A stretch of 64,000 bases of DNA from Leptolyngbya ohadii IS1 (GTDB lineage Bacteria; Cyanobacteriota; Cyanobacteriia; Elainellales; Elainellaceae). Where the stretch lies: NCBI RefSeq assembly GCF_002215035.1, contig NZ_NKFP01000004.1, positions 869,726 to 933,725 on the forward strand, given 5' to 3'. Numbering within the stretch: position 1 is the stretch's first letter; every line of letters starts with the position of its first letter. The position numbers and the translations under genes are program-made. Below the pieces are notes generated by a model. It did not search any database. It was not told the DNA's origin and saw only the letters and a program-made list of their open reading frames with translations. Shown one piece after another: positions 27,124-44,341 of the stretch.

Positions 27124-28116
27124 TTAATCCTGCTGAAAGACTCGCCCTAAAGAAGCGGGCGGCGTGCTGTTCACAAGCTGTCCGATCGATCGACTGACGG
27201 CTGGGGGAAGGCGTTTGAGCAGACGATCGAGCCATTCGCTTGAAGTTAGGACTAGAAAGACAATCATCAGCACAAAGGGAGCGACCGTCAACACCTGGGT
27301 TGGCACATTAGGTAAGGCACTCTGGGCAACGCTCGCCAGGGATTGGAGGATGCCAAACAGATAGCAGCCAAACGCAGCCCGCAGCGGATTCCAGCCGCCA
27401 AAAATGACGATCGCCAGCGCAATCCACCCGTAGCCTGCCGTATGGCGATGACTCCAGCCCGCCTTGAAATCCAGCGAGAAAGCGGCTCCTGCAATGCCCA
27501 TCAGCGCACCACCTAACAGCGTGTACAGGTAGCGCATTCGCACCACATTGGTTCCGCGCACAAACGCCGCCGCAGGCTGTTCCCCGATCGCCCTCAGCAT
27601 CAGTCCGGGTCGAGTGCGATAGAAAAAGAAAGCCGTGCCGAGAATCAGCAAATAGCTGCAATAGACGAGCAAATCGCTCTGAAACAGCAGCGGTCCCAGC
27701 ACCGGAATATTTTGCAGCAGCGGCAGCTTAAAACTGGGCACCACCGGACCCGGAATTCGCACAAACGGATTGCCCAGAAAGGACGACAAATCCGCGCAGA
27801 GCAATGCCAGCACAAAGCCGATCGCCACCTGGGACTGCTGAAGCGTCAATGCTCCAAATGCCACGATCAGCGCGATCGCTGCCCCCGTGAGAGCCGCTGC
27901 TCCAAATCCGAGCAGTAAGCAGGGCGTAGTTCCCAGTCCTTCCGTAGTTTTGGCAACCGCAAAGCCTACCATTGCTGAAAGTAGGATAGTGCCTTCGGCG
28001 GAGAGGTTAATGACTCCCGCTCGTTCAGTAATGGTTTCCCCAACGGCGGCAAAAATCAGAGGGGTTGAAGTGGCGATCGCAACGGCGAGGATGGCGATGA
28101 TTTGGGCAGCGGACAT
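27124..28116 (-). CDS. BMP-type ABC transporter permease 2 (nucleoside/purine family)
   Basis: 330 residues, about 8-9 hydrophobic helices, BPD_transp_2-type fold: GETITERAGVINLSAEGTIL near the N-terminus, GQQ-like turn GEQPAAAFVRG, and AGYGWIALAIVIFGGWNPL near the end. This is the second permease of transporters that pair with BMP lipoproteins for uptake of nucleosides, purines or similar heterocycles. The ATG at 28116 starts the conserved part; the in-frame extension upstream reaches into the palindrome and is not trusted. Codons 28117-28173 (FALLGRGFSHRK) may in fact be the tail of permease 1. Confidence 0.88.
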   Translation of the reverse strand: MSAAQIIAILAVAIATSTPLIFAAVGETITERAGVINLSAEGTILLSAMVGFAVAKTTEGLGTTPCLLLGFGAAALTGAAIALIVAFGALTLQQSQVAIGFVLALLCADLSSFLGNPFVRIPGPVVPSFKLPLLQNIPVLGPLLFQSDLLVYCSYLLILGTAFFFYRTRPGLMLRAIGEQPAAAFVRGTNVVRMRYLYTLLGGALMGIAGAAFSLDFKAGWSHRHTAGYGWIALAIVIFGGWNPLRAAFGCYLFGILQSLASVAQSALPNVPTQVLTVAPFVLMIVFLVLTSSEWLDRLLKRLPPAVSRSIGQLVNSTPPASLGRVFQQD

Positions 28117-28173
28117 AGGGGGGAGGGTGGACTGTTTGCGGTGGCTGAAGCCGCGTCCCAGGAGGGCGAATAG

Positions 28174-28711
28174 GACGATCGTGGTCATGCGCGGCACCTA
28201 CTTCGGACTCAAGCTGAAAGCCGTAGGACAAAACCTCAGAGCCTCCTACGTCCTGGGCATTCCCTCCGTGCGGCAGTTACTTAGCGCCTTTGCCATTTGC
28301 GGAGCCTGTGCCGGACTTGCGGGAGCCTTGCAGGTGCTTGCCGTCTTCCATCGCCTGATTCCTACCGTATCCAGCAATCTGGGCTACCTGTCCCTGCTGA
28401 TCGCCATGCTCATCGGCTCCAATGCCTGGCTGATTTTGCCGATCGGCAAAATCAGCCAGGCATTGGAGCCGATGAGCATGGCGATCAGCAGGGACAGGTA
28501 GCCCAGATTGCTGGATACGGTAGGAATCAGGCGATGGAAGACGGCAAGCACCTGCAAGGCTCCCGCAAGTCCGGCACAGGCTCCGCAAATGGCAAAGGCG
28601 CTAAGTAACTGCCGCACGGAGGGAATGCCCAGGACGTAGGAGGCTCTGAGGTTTTGTCCTACGGCTTTCAGCTTGAGTCCGAAGTAGGTGCCGCGCATGA
28701 CCACGATCGTC
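28174..28711. repeat. perfect spacerless inverted duplication (538-bp palindrome)
   Basis: Arm 28174-28442 is the exact reverse complement of 28443-28711, 269 bp each, with the axis inside GCCGATCGGC. Proof visible in translation: identical 103-residue frames lie at mirror positions on both strands, and the last about 100 residues of permease 1 are repeated on the opposite strand. It replaces the true 3' end of permease 1. A palindrome of this size with no spacer is expected to be very unstable in cells. Confidence 0.97.
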
Positions 28712-29319
28712 GCTGCCAACACCAGCAATGCCAGGATCAGGGCGATCGGGCTGGCTTGGGTGTTGCCAAAGGTGGGGAGCCAGAGGGATTCGTTAAACTG
28801 CTCCGTGCCGCTCATGGAGGCAACGCCCGATCGCTTCCAGGGACCGAAGATCAGGTAAATTGCCAGTCCGTCGGCGACAAAGTTTAGCCCCAGCCCGGCA
28901 AAGATTTCGTTGATGCGTCCATAGACGTTCAGCACGCCTGCAAATAAGCCCCACAGTGCCCCGCCCAGTATGCCCGCCAGAATTGCCAGCACAATCACCA
29001 CAAATGGCGGCAGCGTATTCTCAAACAGACGGATTGGGATCATGGAGGCGATCGCCCCGGCGGAGATCTGTCCCTCAATCCCCAGGTTGTAGAGTCCGGC
29101 AGTGAAGGTAAACAGCAGTCCGCAGGTGCAGAGAATTAGCGGCACCAGGGTCATCACGACTCGCGCCATCTGATCGGGCGTGCCAAATGCCCCGGAACTC
29201 ATGTTGGTCAAGACTTCGATCGGGGAACCGCCCACCAGCAGAATTACGATCGCGATAAACACCAGCGATAGGGCGATCGCGCCAGTTTGATAGACGGTGG
29301 ATTGGGAAAGTTTGGGCAT
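28384..29319 (-). CDS. BMP-type ABC transporter permease 1, 3' end disrupted by palindrome
   Basis: Starts MPKLSQSTVYQTGAIALSLV at 29319. The conserved permease sequence (LYNLGIEGQISAGAIASMIP, NVYGRINEIFAGLGLNFVAD, GTYFGLKLKAVGQNLRASYV) runs to the palindrome axis at 28443. The last 20 residues (GKISQALEPMSMAISRDR) come from the mirrored strand, so the authentic C-terminus, probably 50-70 residues with the last helices, is missing. Without this artefact or mutation the protein would be a normal partner of permease 2. It lies 55 bp after the ATPase gene in the same operon. Confidence 0.85.
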   Translation of the reverse strand: MPKLSQSTVYQTGAIALSLVFIAIVILLVGGSPIEVLTNMSSGAFGTPDQMARVVMTLVPLILCTCGLLFTFTAGLYNLGIEGQISAGAIASMIPIRLFENTLPPFVVIVLAILAGILGGALWGLFAGVLNVYGRINEIFAGLGLNFVADGLAIYLIFGPWKRSGVASMSGTEQFNESLWLPTFGNTQASPIALILALLVLAATIVVMRGTYFGLKLKAVGQNLRASYVLGIPSVRQLLSAFAICGACAGLAGALQVLAVFHRLIPTVSSNLGYLSLLIAMLIGSNAWLILPIGKISQALEPMSMAISRDR

Positions 29320-29374
29320 AGGGAAGGACAACAGGGAAGAGGAATGACCCGACGAGCAGTTTTTGTTTATCCGA

Positions 29375-30898
29375 TCACATTTTGTTTGGAACAATTTGCT
29401 CCAGCCGATCGGGCAAACCCTCTGAATCGATCGCCTCATCAAACCGTCCACCAATCATTTGTCCCAGGCGATCGACGGTTAGTTTCGAGGCATCAATGGG
29501 CTGGGAAATTTGTCCGCTGCTAAACACAATCACCCGATCGCTGTACTGCATGATCTCATCCAGGTCAGGTGAGGTAAACAGAATCGTCGTGCCACCTTCG
29601 CAGCGAGCAATCAACTGCTGCCAGACCCATAGGGTTGATTCGATGTCCAGTCCGCGGGTGGGTTGCTCCATCAGCAAAAGATTCAGCGGGACGGGCAGAA
29701 GGGAAAGCTGAGTGCGCTGCTGATTGCCGCCGGACAGCCGTTCAACCTTGCTATTCGGTCTGCCTCGAATGTTAAACAGGGCGATCGCTCTTTGAGTCTT
29801 CTCTAAAATGTCTTTCCAGTCGATAAACCAGCTTTTTGCGGGGGTTCGCAGGGCAACGTGTTCCTGAATCGTCAGACCGGGAATCAGCCCCTCCCGGAGT
29901 CGATCGGCGGGGGAGTAGCCAATGCCTGCGTTCAGGTATGCCGGATAGGGCTGCCGCGTTATGTCCTGCCCGTCCACCTGAATTTTGCCCGTCGGGGATG
30001 AAAGGAGTCCGGCGCAAAGCTGAAGCAAGAGCTGCTGTCCGCTGCCTTCCAGTCCGGCTAAGCCAATGACTTCCCCCTGGCAGACGGTCAGGTGCTTAAT
30101 GCGGATATTCAGCCGATCGCTCACCAGCGTCACATTTTCGAGTTCCAGGGCGATCGCTTCTCTGCGGGTGGGGGGCTTGACTGGGGGAGCCAGTTCGTGT
30201 CCAAAGATCAGATTAATTAGCTCAGATTCCGAGCAGGGCACGGGCAGATCTCCGACCACCTGACCCTGGCGCATCACCGTGAGACGATCGCAGAGCTGAT
30301 TCACGTCCTCCAGCTTGTGGGACACAAAAATCACCGATTTGCCCTGGTTTGCCAGTTTTCGAGCAGCGGCAAACAGAGCATCCTTCTGAGCGGCAGAAAT
30401 GCCCGTCGTGGGTTCGTCCAGAATCAGCGTATTTACCCCTAGAGAAAGGAGCCGCAGGATTTCGAGCTGCTGCCGTTCGCCGACGGTTAAATTACCGACC
30501 TTTGCGTAAATATTCAGATCAAAATTAAACTGCGATGCCAATTCGCTGAACTGCCGCACCACCTGCGATCGATCCATCAGCAAACTGCCGGACTTGCCCA
30601 CCATAAAATTCTCCAGCACCGTGAGCGGCGGAAAGTCCAGGGGATCTTGGTGCAGCATCCCGATTCCCAACCGCATCGCATCGGCGGGAGTCCGAATCTC
30701 GGTTTCCTTGCCGTCCAGCAACAGCCGCCCCGAATCTTTGGTAATAAAGCCGCTGAGGATCTTGACCAGCGTACTTTTTCCCGCCCCATTTTCACCCAGA
30801 AGCCCGTGAATGCTGCCCGCTTCTACCGTGAGCGAAATGCGATCGTTCGCCTGAACTGTGCCAAATCGCTTGCTGATGTCCTGAAGTTCAACTTTCAT
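29375..30898 (-). CDS. BMP-type ABC transporter ATPase with two ATP-binding domains
   Basis: 507 residues. NBD1 has a full Walker A (LLGENGAGKST), signature LTVGERQQLEIL and Walker B LILDEPT. NBD2 is degenerate at Walker A (GLEGSGQQ, no GKT) but keeps the signature LSGGNQQRTQLS and the Walker B-like LLMEQPTRGLD. This asymmetric tandem is typical of sugar/nucleoside importers (RbsA/YufO class). It lies upstream of both permeases and downstream of the BMP lipoprotein, so the four form one importer for a nucleoside- or purine-like compound. Confidence 0.93.
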   Translation of the reverse strand: MKVELQDISKRFGTVQANDRISLTVEAGSIHGLLGENGAGKSTLVKILSGFITKDSGRLLLDGKETEIRTPADAMRLGIGMLHQDPLDFPPLTVLENFMVGKSGSLLMDRSQVVRQFSELASQFNFDLNIYAKVGNLTVGERQQLEILRLLSLGVNTLILDEPTTGISAAQKDALFAAARKLANQGKSVIFVSHKLEDVNQLCDRLTVMRQGQVVGDLPVPCSESELINLIFGHELAPPVKPPTRREAIALELENVTLVSDRLNIRIKHLTVCQGEVIGLAGLEGSGQQLLLQLCAGLLSSPTGKIQVDGQDITRQPYPAYLNAGIGYSPADRLREGLIPGLTIQEHVALRTPAKSWFIDWKDILEKTQRAIALFNIRGRPNSKVERLSGGNQQRTQLSLLPVPLNLLLMEQPTRGLDIESTLWVWQQLIARCEGGTTILFTSPDLDEIMQYSDRVIVFSSGQISQPIDASKLTVDRLGQMIGGRFDEAIDSEGLPDRLEQIVPNKM

Positions 30899-31073: not shown

Positions 31074-32363
31074 TTACTTGCTGGCTCCGTCCATGCCTTC
31101 AAGCAACTGCGGCAGATACCAGATTTCCTGATCTGTTGCCGTCTTGCCTTCTGCCACAAAAGTCGTGCCGTCCTGGAACTTAATCGGACCCTGGTAGGGG
31201 TTAACGCTGCCGTCGCCCAACCCCTGGATGAACTTATCGAGATTGGCTTTCTGGTCGCCCAGGGCATTGCCGGGGAGGAACCCGATCATTGAGGTAGGAG
31301 CGTTGATATCTTTCCATTCGGGACCGAGCCAGAGGAATTCGTTCGGCATCTGACCGTCCATTGTCTTTTTAATCGCCGTTTCGTAGGGAATTCCCCAGTT
31401 GTAGTAGGGCACGCCCAGACAGATATCCGGTGCCAGGTCGCAGCCGCCCTTAAAGTCGTAGTGGACATACTTCACGGCTTTGCCCGCGTCCGCTGCTTTC
31501 TTTGCCTGCGCCGAAACTTCGGGGGTATCAATTCCGGACATCACGACATCGTAGCCGCCGTTGTAGAAGTCGTCTGCTACTTTGGTTGGGTCTAGCGTTT
31601 TACCCGGAATGTTGAACCAGAAGCCAATCCAGGTCACTTTAAAGTCCAGATTATCCGCAGGCTGATTCTTGACGTTCTCCCAGCAGTGCTTCGCGCCCAG
31701 GTAAGCTGCCGACACATAGCGACGGGTTTCATCATTGATCAGGGCGCCCACATAGCCGATCTTGCCTGTATCTGAACCCAGTGCGGCTGCACAGCCCGCC
31801 ATCATCTTGCCGTACTCCATGCGACCCATGATGTTGCCCAGGTTTGGCTGGTTCTTAAAATTCTTGCCGTCCTTCCAGGCATAGTCGCCGGATGCGTGGA
31901 TCACTGCTACGTCCGAATGCTTTTTCGCCGTTTCCAGGGCATCGTCCTTGAAGTCATCCGAGTTAAAGATGACCATCTTCGCGCCTTTAGAAATCAGATC
32001 ATCTGCAACCTGTGCGCCTGTGACGTTGGGACGATCGGCAGGGTTGACCTTATCCACATACTCAAACTTGAGGTCGGGCATTCTCTGCAAAACTTCCTGC
32101 ATCCCGTCGTAGTGTGCCTGGTTCCAGCCAGAGTCGTTTCGGGGACCCACCAGCACCATACCCACCGTAAAGGGATCGCTGCCCCCAGCCGCCGGACTTT
32201 CTGCCGAGGGACTGGACGTGGTTGCGGTCGGAGTATTGGATGTGCCACAGCCCACAATCAACCCGATCGTCGCAGAGAAAAGGACAAAGCTGCGCCAAAA
32301 TCCGCGCAGGCGAAACCGTACCGGAGAAACTATTTGCTCTAGCAAGGGAGTTATCTTCTTCAT
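31074..32363 (-). CDS. BMP-family substrate-binding lipoprotein
   Basis: About 429 residues. An N-terminal basic region and hydrophobic helix end in a lipobox (IGLIVGC), followed by a Thr/Ser/Pro-rich linker (TPTATTSSPSAESPA). The PnrA/BMP-type periplasmic fold follows: FTVGMVLVGPRNDSGWNQAH, then KMVIFNSDDF, VIHASGDYAW, GRMEYGKMMAGCAAAL, YDVVMSGIDTPE. It captures a nucleoside-, purine- or related ligand for the ABC importer. ATG 32363 gives a typical signal sequence; ATG 32372 or 32399 are possible. No clear Shine-Dalgarno is seen for any of them. First gene of the operon. Confidence 0.9.
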   Translation of the reverse strand: MKKITPLLEQIVSPVRFRLRGFWRSFVLFSATIGLIVGCGTSNTPTATTSSPSAESPAAGGSDPFTVGMVLVGPRNDSGWNQAHYDGMQEVLQRMPDLKFEYVDKVNPADRPNVTGAQVADDLISKGAKMVIFNSDDFKDDALETAKKHSDVAVIHASGDYAWKDGKNFKNQPNLGNIMGRMEYGKMMAGCAAALGSDTGKIGYVGALINDETRRYVSAAYLGAKHCWENVKNQPADNLDFKVTWIGFWFNIPGKTLDPTKVADDFYNGGYDVVMSGIDTPEVSAQAKKAADAGKAVKYVHYDFKGGCDLAPDICLGVPYYNWGIPYETAIKKTMDGQMPNEFLWLGPEWKDINAPTSMIGFLPGNALGDQKANLDKFIQGLGDGSVNPYQGPIKFQDGTTFVAEGKTATDQEIWYLPQLLEGMDGASK

Positions 32364-33115
32364 TGAATTCATGCGAGACACAAAAACTGACGAATGCAAC
32401 AGTTAAATAAAGAATTCGGGTAAAGAATTCGGGCAAAAACCAGAAATCAAGCAACCAATCAGAACTCAATCACATCAGAACTTAATCACAAAAGTCCTAA
32501 GATATCACGCAAAACTTCCAGCCGCAGTGCAGCAGGATTAGAAATCTTTGAGAATGGCTTAAGAGAATTTTGAGCAAGCTCAGGGGGTGAACTAGCACAC
32601 TCGATCGTTGGACTGAATTTGAAAGTGCGGTTGAACGTGCGGAGAGAAACTTGGTTGGTGTAATCACACCCTCACACGCCGATCATAGGCGAAAAACGAG
32701 AAATCTGACGGCGAAGCAGCGGTTAACCGATTAGCTGTAGCCGCTACACCTGTCAGCGAATGCCGAGAAAGCCGAAACTTTGAGATTTATTGAGATTGCT
32801 TCACCTGCCCCACCTCAAGAACGGTAGTGATCGTAACAAGTTGACCCATTATGATCTCTGACCTGGCGAGAAATTGTAGTTCAAGTTACAGAGGTCTATG
32901 GGAGCAATAATCTCTTAAGGTTGTTGAGATAGGCTTCCACAGAAATACCGAAAAAATACCAAAAAAAAGCCGCCCGACTTTTTCGTCAAAGCGGCTATTT
33001 CTCTGAGGAATGCATCAAGCGATCGCTATATCAGAATGTCACTTCAGTCAGGATGTCGCTTAAGACCGATCGCCTATGAATTAAGGGAATTACAGAATGC
33101 AGGGTTGAGCAGGCG
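32364..33115. other. 752-bp intergenic region upstream of the BMP operon
   Basis: No gene seen. It contains two pairs of adjacent direct repeats in the likely promoter zone of the BMP operon: TAAAGAATTCGGG twice at 32408-32433, and ATCAGAACTCAATCAC then ATCAGAACTTAATCAC at 32458-32489. It also carries the dps terminator near 32961-32996. The repeats might be regulator sites; this is inference. Confidence 0.6.
32961..32996 (-). terminator. Rho-independent terminator downstream of dps
   Basis: On the minus strand AGCCGC and GCGGCT pair around a 17-nt loop and are followed by eight T residues. It lies about 120 bp past the dps stop. Confidence 0.8.
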
Positions 33116-42897: not shown

Positions 42898-43393
42898 GAA
42901 AGCGATCGATTCCCTGGTTTTGCTTCACTGCCCCCACGATGCCCATTGGAATTGCGATCGTCCAAGTGATGAACAGAGAGGCAAGCGACAGCAGCAGAGT
43001 CGCCGGAATCCGCTCCCACAGGATCTCCGTTACCGGACGCTGGGCATAGGCAAAGCTAACGCCAAAATCGAGCCGCGTAACCACCTGCCGCAGCCACAGG
43101 AAATACTGCTGCACCACTGGCTTATCCAGCCCAAACTGCTGCTGAAACTGCTTCAGGGTTTCCTCTGAAATTTGGGGATTTTGCCGCAGGTTGTCCAGAA
43201 AGTTACCCGGCGAAAGCTGAATCACAAAGAAACTCAGCGCCGAAGCCAGCAGCAGCAGTTTGGGCTGGATAAGCCAGTGGTGCAGCAGTATTTCCTGTGG
43301 CTGCGGCAGGTGGTTACGCGGCTCGATTTTGGCGTTAGCTTTGCCTATGCCCAGCGTCCGGTAACGGAGATCCTGTGGGAGCGGATTCCGGCG
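42898..43393. repeat. fold-back duplication at the 5' end of the permease gene
   Basis: Segment 42898-43256 is the reverse complement of 43402-43760 (359 bp). It is followed by 43250-43393, a direct copy of 43514-43657 (144 bp). The two pieces share CAGCAGC at the junction. A further match of 25 bp to 42285-42309 overlaps the left end. The original start of the permease gene is replaced by this block. Confidence 0.95.
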
Positions 43394-44341
43394 TTGCTGA
43401 CGCTGCTGCTGGCTTCGGCGCTGAGTTTCTTTGTGATTCAGCTTTCGCCGGGTAACTTTCTGGACAACCTGCGGCAAAATCCCCAAATTTCAGAGGAAAC
43501 CCTGAAGCAGTTTCAGCAGCAGTTTGGGCTGGATAAGCCAGTGGTGCAGCAGTATTTCCTGTGGCTGCGGCAGGTGGTTACGCGGCTCGATTTTGGCGTT
43601 AGCTTTGCCTATGCCCAGCGTCCGGTAACGGAGATCCTGTGGGAGCGGATTCCGGCGACTCTGCTGCTGTCGCTTGCCTCTCTGTTCATCACTTGGACGA
43701 TCGCAATTCCAATGGGCATCGTGGGGGCAGTGAAGCAAAACCAGGGAATCGATCGCTTTCTGCGGGTGATTAGCTATCTGGGGCAGGGACTTCCGACGCT
43801 GATTACAGGACTGCTGCTGCTGTACTTCGCGCAGATTACGTCGCCGCTGTTTCCGGTGGGGGGAATGACCAGTATTGACCATGCGGATCTAACGCCGATC
43901 GGCAAAATTCTCGATATCGCGTGGCATATGATTCTGCCCACCCTGGCACTCAGTATTACCAGCTTTGCCGGACTTCAGCGCATTATGCGAGGTGAACTGC
44001 TGGACGTGCTGCGGCAGGATTACATTCAGACGGCACGGGCGAAGGGTCTGCCGGAAAATCGCGTCATTTATGTCCATGCGCTGCGGAATGCCGTCAACCC
44101 TCTGATCACGCTGCTTGGCTTTGAGTTTGCAGGACTGCTCGGCGGTGCGTTTATTACTGAAAACTACTTCAACTGGCCCGGTCTGGGTAAGCTGATCCTG
44201 CAAGCGGTACAGGCAAAGGATCTCTATCTAGTCATGGCAAGCCTGATGATGGGTGCATTTCTGCTCATCCTAGGCAATTTACTCGCCGATCTGCTGTTGA
44301 AGGTCGTCGATCCGCGCATTAAGCTGACGGAGATGAATTAA
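43172..44341 (+). CDS. DppB/OppB-type ABC permease, chimeric 5' end
   Basis: An open frame of 389 codons, but only 43394-44341 is authentic: LLTLLLASALSFFVIQLSPG marks the first normal helix and about 316 residues follow. The earlier codons are antisense or duplicated sequence; for example QFGLDKPVVQQYFLWLRQVV occurs twice. The native start, roughly 10 residues, is lost. The remainder is a typical di/oligopeptide-type permease with LDVLRQDYIQTARAKGLPEN (EAA loop) and a normal C-terminus. No DppC, ATPase or binding protein follows, so the transporter partners are elsewhere. Confidence 0.82.
   Translation: MGILPQVVQKVTRRKLNHKETQRRSQQQQFGLDKPVVQQYFLWLRQVVTRLDFGVSFAYAQRPVTEILWERIPALLTLLLASALSFFVIQLSPGNFLDNLRQNPQISEETLKQFQQQFGLDKPVVQQYFLWLRQVVTRLDFGVSFAYAQRPVTEILWERIPATLLLSLASLFITWTIAIPMGIVGAVKQNQGIDRFLRVISYLGQGLPTLITGLLLLYFAQITSPLFPVGGMTSIDHADLTPIGKILDIAWHMILPTLALSITSFAGLQRIMRGELLDVLRQDYIQTARAKGLPENRVIYVHALRNAVNPLITLLGFEFAGLLGGAFITENYFNWPGLGKLILQAVQAKDLYLVMASLMMGAFLLILGNLLADLLLKVVDPRIKLTEMN

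What the first reader, a model, noticed from the sequence alone, without database searches (positions are those of the whole stretch)
28174..28711. Perfect 538-bp palindrome without spacer that truncates an ABC permease gene
The arms are exact mirror images around GCCGATCGGC. Known biology: long spacerless palindromes are cut by SbcCD or lost during replication. The gene's authentic 3' end is missing and the antisense strand repeats its last 100 codons. CGATCG cores lie at the axis and near the outer arm end (28176), suggesting fold-back at HIP1-type sites during amplification or replication. I consider an MDA or assembly chimera most likely.
Basis: partly seen in the sequence, partly recalled or inferred. 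Interest (0 to 1): 0.75.

Follow-up and report, generated by a model that had tools for sequence, protein, structure and literature searches.

The report
Palindrome made by faulty genome assembly
The 538-base mirror-image sequence really is in the deposited genome, but it looks like an error of sequencing or assembly: the same genome holds many such folded-back patches, some swallow pieces of essential genes, and a related strain has the normal sequence at the same place.

Summary
The palindrome is exact: 2 x 269 bp, window 28174-28711, axis 28442/28443. The same-genus genome G001 carries the operon collinearly. After a native CCGATCGG at the axis it has 86 nt that our assembly lacks, then ACGATCGT, where our sequence resumes. 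So a native stretch was replaced by an inverted copy of its right flank, cutting off a permease tail present in 74 of 74 relatives tested. It is not unique: 2.05 Mb of this 7.9 Mb assembly hold 58 close exact inverted repeats in about 22 clusters, with perfect palindromes up to 1020 bp; two relatives, 0.4 Mb each, had none. Other clusters also lose native DNA and re-use both flanks in both orientations. The N-termini of the only dxr and purH found are missing at two of them. The genome has SbcC and SbcD homologues, and a 460-bp perfect palindrome kills SbcCD-expressing E. coli (PMC4245961, passages). Verdict: a fold-back chimera frozen into the assembly, probably at a coverage gap. Wet-lab or software origin is unresolved; no reads were seen.

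The parts
28443..28711 (-). Right arm: native sequence of the permease gene (BPD_transp_2)
   Evidence: Collinear with G001:C34 up to the axis; Pfam PF02653
28174..28442 (+). Left arm: exact inverted copy of the right arm, in the place of 86 nt of native gene in G001
   Evidence: 269 of 269 complementary; G001 has other sequence here; that stretch has no match in the own assembly
28438..28447 (.). Axis GCCGATCGGC; the core CCGATCGG is native in G001: first switch point
28174..28183 (.). Outer join GACGATCGTG; 9 nt (CACGATCGT, minus strand) are shared with the G001 sequence at the return point: second switch point
28384..29454 (-). Truncated ABC permease ORF (BPD_transp_2; YufP-like, name recalled), tail replaced by antisense
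27124..28116 (-). Second permease (BPD_transp_2; YufQ-like, name recalled); the residual tail of the first permease (28117-28173) runs into it in frame without a stop
29375..30898 (-). ABC ATPase of the same operon (PF00005)
31074..32399 (-). Bmp/PnrA-like substrate-binding protein of the same operon (PF02608)
42898..43760 (.). Second fold-back patch in the window (exact arms of 359 bp, spacer 145, and 144 bp, spacer 105) at the 5' end of a BPD_transp_1 permease ORF

Best explanation
The palindrome is a chimeric join in the assembly, not a chromosomal structure. A stretch of the native gene (86 nt in G001) was not represented in what was assembled. The right-hand sequence was continued by a strand that folded back at the native short palindrome GCCGATCGGC and ran 269 nt back along its own complement. 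It was then joined to the left-hand sequence at about 9 nt of shared sequence around ACGATCGT. The same process made about 20 other patches in the quarter of the genome sampled. Shown: exact mirror, missing native stretch, native palindrome at the axis, short shared sequence at the return, recurrence across the assembly, essential genes incomplete. Inferred: that reads or gap filling, not the cell, did it; that the trigger was missing coverage; and that this palindrome belongs to the same class as the others.
For:: 58 close exact inverted repeats in 2.053 Mb of G000 against 0 in 0.4 Mb of G001 and 0 in 0.4 Mb of G003; 86 nt of G001 replaced and without a match in the whole assembly; at L175 about 325 native bp are missing, replaced by copies of both flanks in both orientations, two direct copies ending at the same G001 position; the only dxr matches PF02670 from position 42 of 129, with an inverted partial copy beside it; purH matches PF02142 from position 29 of 94 and its 5' stretch of G001 is absent. 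with PMC4245961 (passages): SbcCD homologues present, and a 460-bp perfect palindrome is lethal with SbcCD in E. coli; 96 of 143 differences from G001 over 870 nt are at third codon positions, so the gene shows no decay besides the lesion; a 96-nt stretch joined to the 1020-bp palindrome matches pdxJ at 69 of 96 positions without indels but breaks its protein sequence, as a poor-quality read might.
Against: No reads, coverage or method record could be seen. The assembly is otherwise good (8 contigs, completeness 100, contamination 0.58). The collinear return at a shared 9-mer is also what in-cell template switching gives. No adapter remnant was found. Not all arms are exact: in a gapped self-comparison 18 of 51 pairs were 100% identical and 33 were lower, 5 of them 80-90%; much of this lies at the outer ends of exact runs, but some could be older, decayed copies. 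The 28% diverged pdxJ-like stretch could also be a decayed copy. Several patches lie between genes.
Confidence: 0.9

Rival explanations
1. A real, very recent mutation: during replication the nascent strand folded back at GCCGATCGGC, copied 269 nt of itself and returned to its template at ACGATCGT (quasipalindrome-type template switching), inactivating the permease in this strain.
For: Both switch points lie on short native sequences of the right kind; the return is collinear; the arms are exact and unmutated.
Against: About 22 clusters in a quarter of the genome would need a massive burst; dxr and purH are hit; SbcC and SbcD homologues are present; the two relatives sampled have none.
Confidence: 0.05
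2. A mixed or polyploid state: some chromosome copies in the culture carry fold-back lesions while intact copies keep the essential genes, and the assembler chose the damaged copies.
For: Would reconcile the incomplete essential genes with a living strain; polyploidy of many cyanobacteria is recalled, not tested.
Against: The assembly would have to prefer the damaged copy repeatedly; no intact copy of the missing yufP, dxr or purH stretch was found in the assembly.
Confidence: 0.03
3. A HIP1/CGATCG-directed rearrangement: CGATCG sites act as specific switch or cutting sites.
For: Both switch points here contain CGATCG; PMC4390886 (passages) cites reports linking HIP1 to site-specific and illegitimate recombination.
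Against: Only 3 of 12 palindrome axes are centred on CGATCG, against 41% of all palindromic hexamers in the sample; the other nine are ATCGAT, AAATTT, GAATTC, CAGCTG and the like.
Confidence: 0.02

Closest known systems
MDA (phi29) inverted chimeras
   Same: Inverted sequence with an intervening deletion, primed at 2-21 complementary nt, mostly within one molecule (PMC1855051, abstract)
   Different: The junction here returns to the collinear position, and several clusters switch many times; no evidence that this DNA was amplified
Library-preparation fold-back chimeras (PDSM; sonication or enzymatic fragmentation)
   Same: Chimeric reads built on native inverted repeats and palindromic sequences (PMC10908179, abstract)
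   Different: Described for human short reads at low allele frequency; here fixed in a consensus, with palindrome arms up to 510 bp
Palindromic long reads after whole-genome amplification or missed SMRTbell adapters
   Same: Artificial inverted repeats that disturb assembly (PMC6218980, passages)
   Different: Longer arms and few fold-backs per read expected (recalled); no adapter remnant found here
Quasipalindrome-associated template-switch mutation
   Same: Fold-back at a short palindrome, copying, and return at short homology (papers seen as listings and abstract starts only)
   Different: Arms recalled as far shorter in known bacterial cases; here recurrent and partly gene-breaking across the assembly

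Membership tests
Fold-back (inverted) sequencing or assembly chimera | Inverted copy of the adjacent sequence with an intervening native deletion | tested here: met
   86 nt of G001 missing; also L175 (about 325 bp) and L208 (about 730 bp of G001 without a match)
Fold-back (inverted) sequencing or assembly chimera | Short complementary or shared sequence at junctions | tested here: met
   Axis palindrome native in G001 in the 3 of 12 palindromes comparable (8, 12 and 10 nt); return at 9 shared nt at the window site
Fold-back (inverted) sequencing or assembly chimera | Recurs across the assembly without regard to gene function | tested here: met
   some patches are intergenic, some hit conserved genes
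Fold-back (inverted) sequencing or assembly chimera | Not supported by independent native reads | not testable with these tools
   No reads held
Quasipalindrome template-switch mutation | Lesion present in the living chromosome and tolerated | tested here: inconclusive
   Indirect evidence against: dxr and purH incomplete, SbcC/SbcD homologues present
Quasipalindrome template-switch mutation | Pre-existing imperfect inverted repeat at the site in relatives | tested here: inconclusive
   G001 has the 8-nt axis palindrome and ACGATCGT at both outer positions, unequally spaced, but no longer inverted repeat was seen
HIP1-directed rearrangement | Switch points enriched for CGATCG above other short palindromes | tested here: not met
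   3 of 12 axes against a 0.41 share of palindromic hexamers

The most novel reading that the evidence does not exclude
The strain really suffers bursts of large-scale template switching at short native palindromes, leaving some 85 fold-back scars per genome (extrapolated from 22 clusters in 2.05 Mb), and survives through intact sister chromosomes of a polyploid cell despite SbcCD.
Probability: 0.04. Interest if true: 0.9.

Novelty: not a real feature. Interest (0 to 1): 0.12.

Why it matters
As biology, little: the permease is most likely intact in the organism. As a warning it is useful. A genome scored 100% complete in 8 contigs carries fold-back patches about once per 90 kb of the part sampled; some lose coding sequence and create false antisense ORFs, and they would mislead palindrome, inverted-repeat or pseudogene surveys. 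A scan for exact inverted repeats with arms of 25 bp or more within 2 kb shows them at once. If the structure were real, it would challenge the view that long perfect palindromes cannot persist in cells with SbcCD.

Tried and rejected
HIP1 as a special site: disfavoured. Missed sequencing adapters between arms: six recalled adapter sequences searched; chance 13-mers of two (SMRTbell, ONT) in four loci, nothing of 16 nt for the five long enough, no 13-mer of TruSeq. Base composition as a cause of the gaps: the yufP, pdxJ-upstream and purH stretches of G001 have ordinary G+C of 0.57, 0.46 and 0.51. First reading of dxr as losing its C-terminus (note): wrong, because my locus ended there; one search showed an intact C-terminus and that the N-terminus is missing (corrected). 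Age from arm divergence: inconclusive. Exact runs are long, with a 1-nt break on one axis (L200) and a 7-nt break on another (L145; coordinates), but the gapped self-comparison gave 18 of 51 pairs at 100% and 33 lower, and outer ends are often imperfectly similar (12 of 44 repeats examined have 15 or more of 30 positions; 44 of the 58 were examined). That fits imperfect overlap joins as well as imperfect homology in cells.

Dropped before counting the 22 clusters: L193:11941-12519 and L210:19589-19933, and the L177, L179, L191 and L216 pairs. L138, L144, L151, L193 and L213 are kept but weak and may be natural repeats. Not every patch breaks a gene: several lie between genes whose listed domains look complete (for example L144, L150, L193).

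Full report
1. Observation. The window holds an exact 538-bp palindrome without spacer at 28174-28711, axis 28442/28443. It is the only perfect palindrome of 16 nt or more in the 64 kb. CGATCG occurs 280 times in the window, so its presence at the axis and outer ends is not striking by itself.

2. Context. The palindrome interrupts an operon for a Bmp/PnrA-type ABC transporter: binding protein (31074-32399), ATPase (29375-30898) and two BPD_transp_2 permeases (28384-29454 and 27124-28116), all on the minus strand. The window is G000:C4:869726-933725 of an assembly of 7.9 Mb in 8 contigs; its closest hits are cyanobacteria.

3. The native locus. At the axis G001 reads CTCCCGATCGGCTTTTTC. Further on it reads GGGCACGATCGTTCTCTTCGCC, where our sequence resumes as CCACGATCGTCCTATTCGCC. 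The 86 nt of G001 between the two matched parts have no match anywhere in our assembly; only the two arms and the resumed part hit. They encode a conserved tail (FFFSALNIGSLQLPL...). I tested 74 of the 76 loci (L105 and L106 are too partial); the tail is present in all 74 by inspection, most diverged in L099, and 72 end in a stop while L056 and L100 run off the contig. So native sequence was lost and replaced by an inverted copy of the right flank, with the first switch at a native palindrome and the second at 9 nt shared with G001. G001 also has the matching ACGATCGT at the outer end of the right arm.

4. A pattern across the assembly. I sampled 2.053 Mb of G000 (26%; contiguous stretches of C4 and C6 plus the window, not random) and searched for exact inverted repeats with arms of 25 bp or more and spacers up to 2 kb. 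There were 58, against none in 0.4 Mb of G001 and none in 0.4 Mb of G003, a single-contig genome of the same family. Twelve perfect palindromes of 68 bp or more were found: 1020, 538, 434, 332, 316, 266, 248, 236, 178, 100, 78 and 70 bp. The 76 relative loci (0.60 Mb) held no perfect palindrome above 34 bp. I grouped the repeats into 22 clusters. The window itself holds a second cluster at 42898-43760.

5. What the patches do. At L175, about 325 bp of G001 are absent here. In their place lie a second direct copy of the left flank ending at the same G001 position, an inverted copy of the left flank, and an inverted copy of the first 510 bp right of the axis, which is pdxJ sequence. At L208 about 730 bp of G001 have no match. 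Just beyond the window's right end, at the cluster C4:934190-936284, the N-terminus of dxr is missing: the whole genome gives only a 42-129/129 match to PF02670 and an inverted partial copy, while the C-terminus is intact. At C6:304907 a 78-bp palindrome stands where the N-terminus of purH should be. Dxr and PurH are needed for isoprenoid and purine synthesis in cyanobacteria (recalled), so a viable chromosome should not look like this.

6. Mechanism. In the three of twelve palindromes where I held the G001 letters, the axis is a short perfect palindrome already present in G001: CCGATCGG, GTCAATATTGAC and GGGAATTCCC. This is what a 3' end or read end snapping back on itself, or overlapping its own complement, would use. 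The overlaps at joins inside a cluster vary (2, 11 and 32 nt at L129, my reading of the coordinates), which speaks against a single fixed overlap setting of a program. In 12 of 44 repeats examined, similarity continues imperfectly beyond the exact arms (15 or more of 30 positions; 99% of random pairs give 14 or fewer); two of these (L200) are one palindrome interrupted by a single mismatch. A 96-nt stretch next to the 1020-bp palindrome resembles pdxJ at 69 of 96 positions without indels. Such features fit joins made through poor or chimeric reads, but imperfect homology used in a cell could look alike. CGATCG plays no special role (3 of 12 axes against a 41% share of palindromic hexamers).

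7. Could it be real? A 460-bp perfect palindrome in the E. coli chromosome kills recombination-proficient cells when SbcCD is expressed (PMC4245961, passages). This genome has a match above the curated cut-off to SbcD (242.5 bits) and to SbcC (498.2 against 478.5 bits when its two neighbouring stretches in one frame are taken together). Their activity is untested, and they lie at different places. The permease is otherwise under normal constraint: differences from G001 are 37, 10 and 96 at codon positions 1, 2 and 3 over 870 nt. A real event would have to be very recent.

8. Against my reading. I saw no reads. The assembly is contiguous and complete by its scores. Template switching in cells would leave the same kind of junction as MDA or library chimeras. 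Several patches lie between genes. In a gapped self-comparison 33 of 51 inverted pairs were below 100% identity, so a spread of ages is not excluded for all of them. The sample was not random and the controls are smaller than the sample. The stop codon and spacer between the two permeases are also missing in our genome next to the palindrome, whereas 72 of 74 relatives end the first permease with a stop; I cannot say whether that is part of the same error.

9. Verdict. Whether whole-genome amplification, library preparation or gap filling made the fold-backs cannot be decided here. Papers: PMC1855051 and PMC10908179 seen as abstracts with section lists; PMC4245961, PMC6218980 and PMC4390886 as passages; other papers only as search listings with the starts of abstracts.

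Noticed in passing
window 42898-43760: A second patch of exact inverted repeats (359-bp and 144-bp arms) with a direct 144-bp repeat, at the 5' end of a BPD_transp_1 permease; it gives the ORF a duplicated N-terminal stretch.
   Followed up: partly
window 28117-28173: The residual tail of the first permease runs in frame into the second without a stop codon or spacer; 72 of 74 relatives tested have a stop there, two run off the contig.
   Followed up: partly
L204:465-2559 (C4:934190-936284), just beyond the window's right end: Fold-back patch between dxr (N-terminus missing) and a selenophosphate-synthase-like ORF (Pyr_redox_2 plus AIRS) whose C-terminal domain was not detected.
   Followed up: partly
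L175:9582-9677: 96-nt pdxJ-like stretch with 27 substitutions and no indels next to the 1020-bp palindrome; noise or a decayed copy.
   Followed up: partly
L120:618-1725 (start of contig C4): Scattered single N bases, suggesting low consensus quality at the contig end; L160 has one run of 361 N, and L188 and L189 a few single Ns.
   Followed up: no
whole G000 sample: CGATCG makes up 41% of all palindromic hexamers (9728 of 23567 in 2.05 Mb); in the window the octamer GCGATCGC accounts for only 31 of 280 CGATCG.
   Followed up: partly
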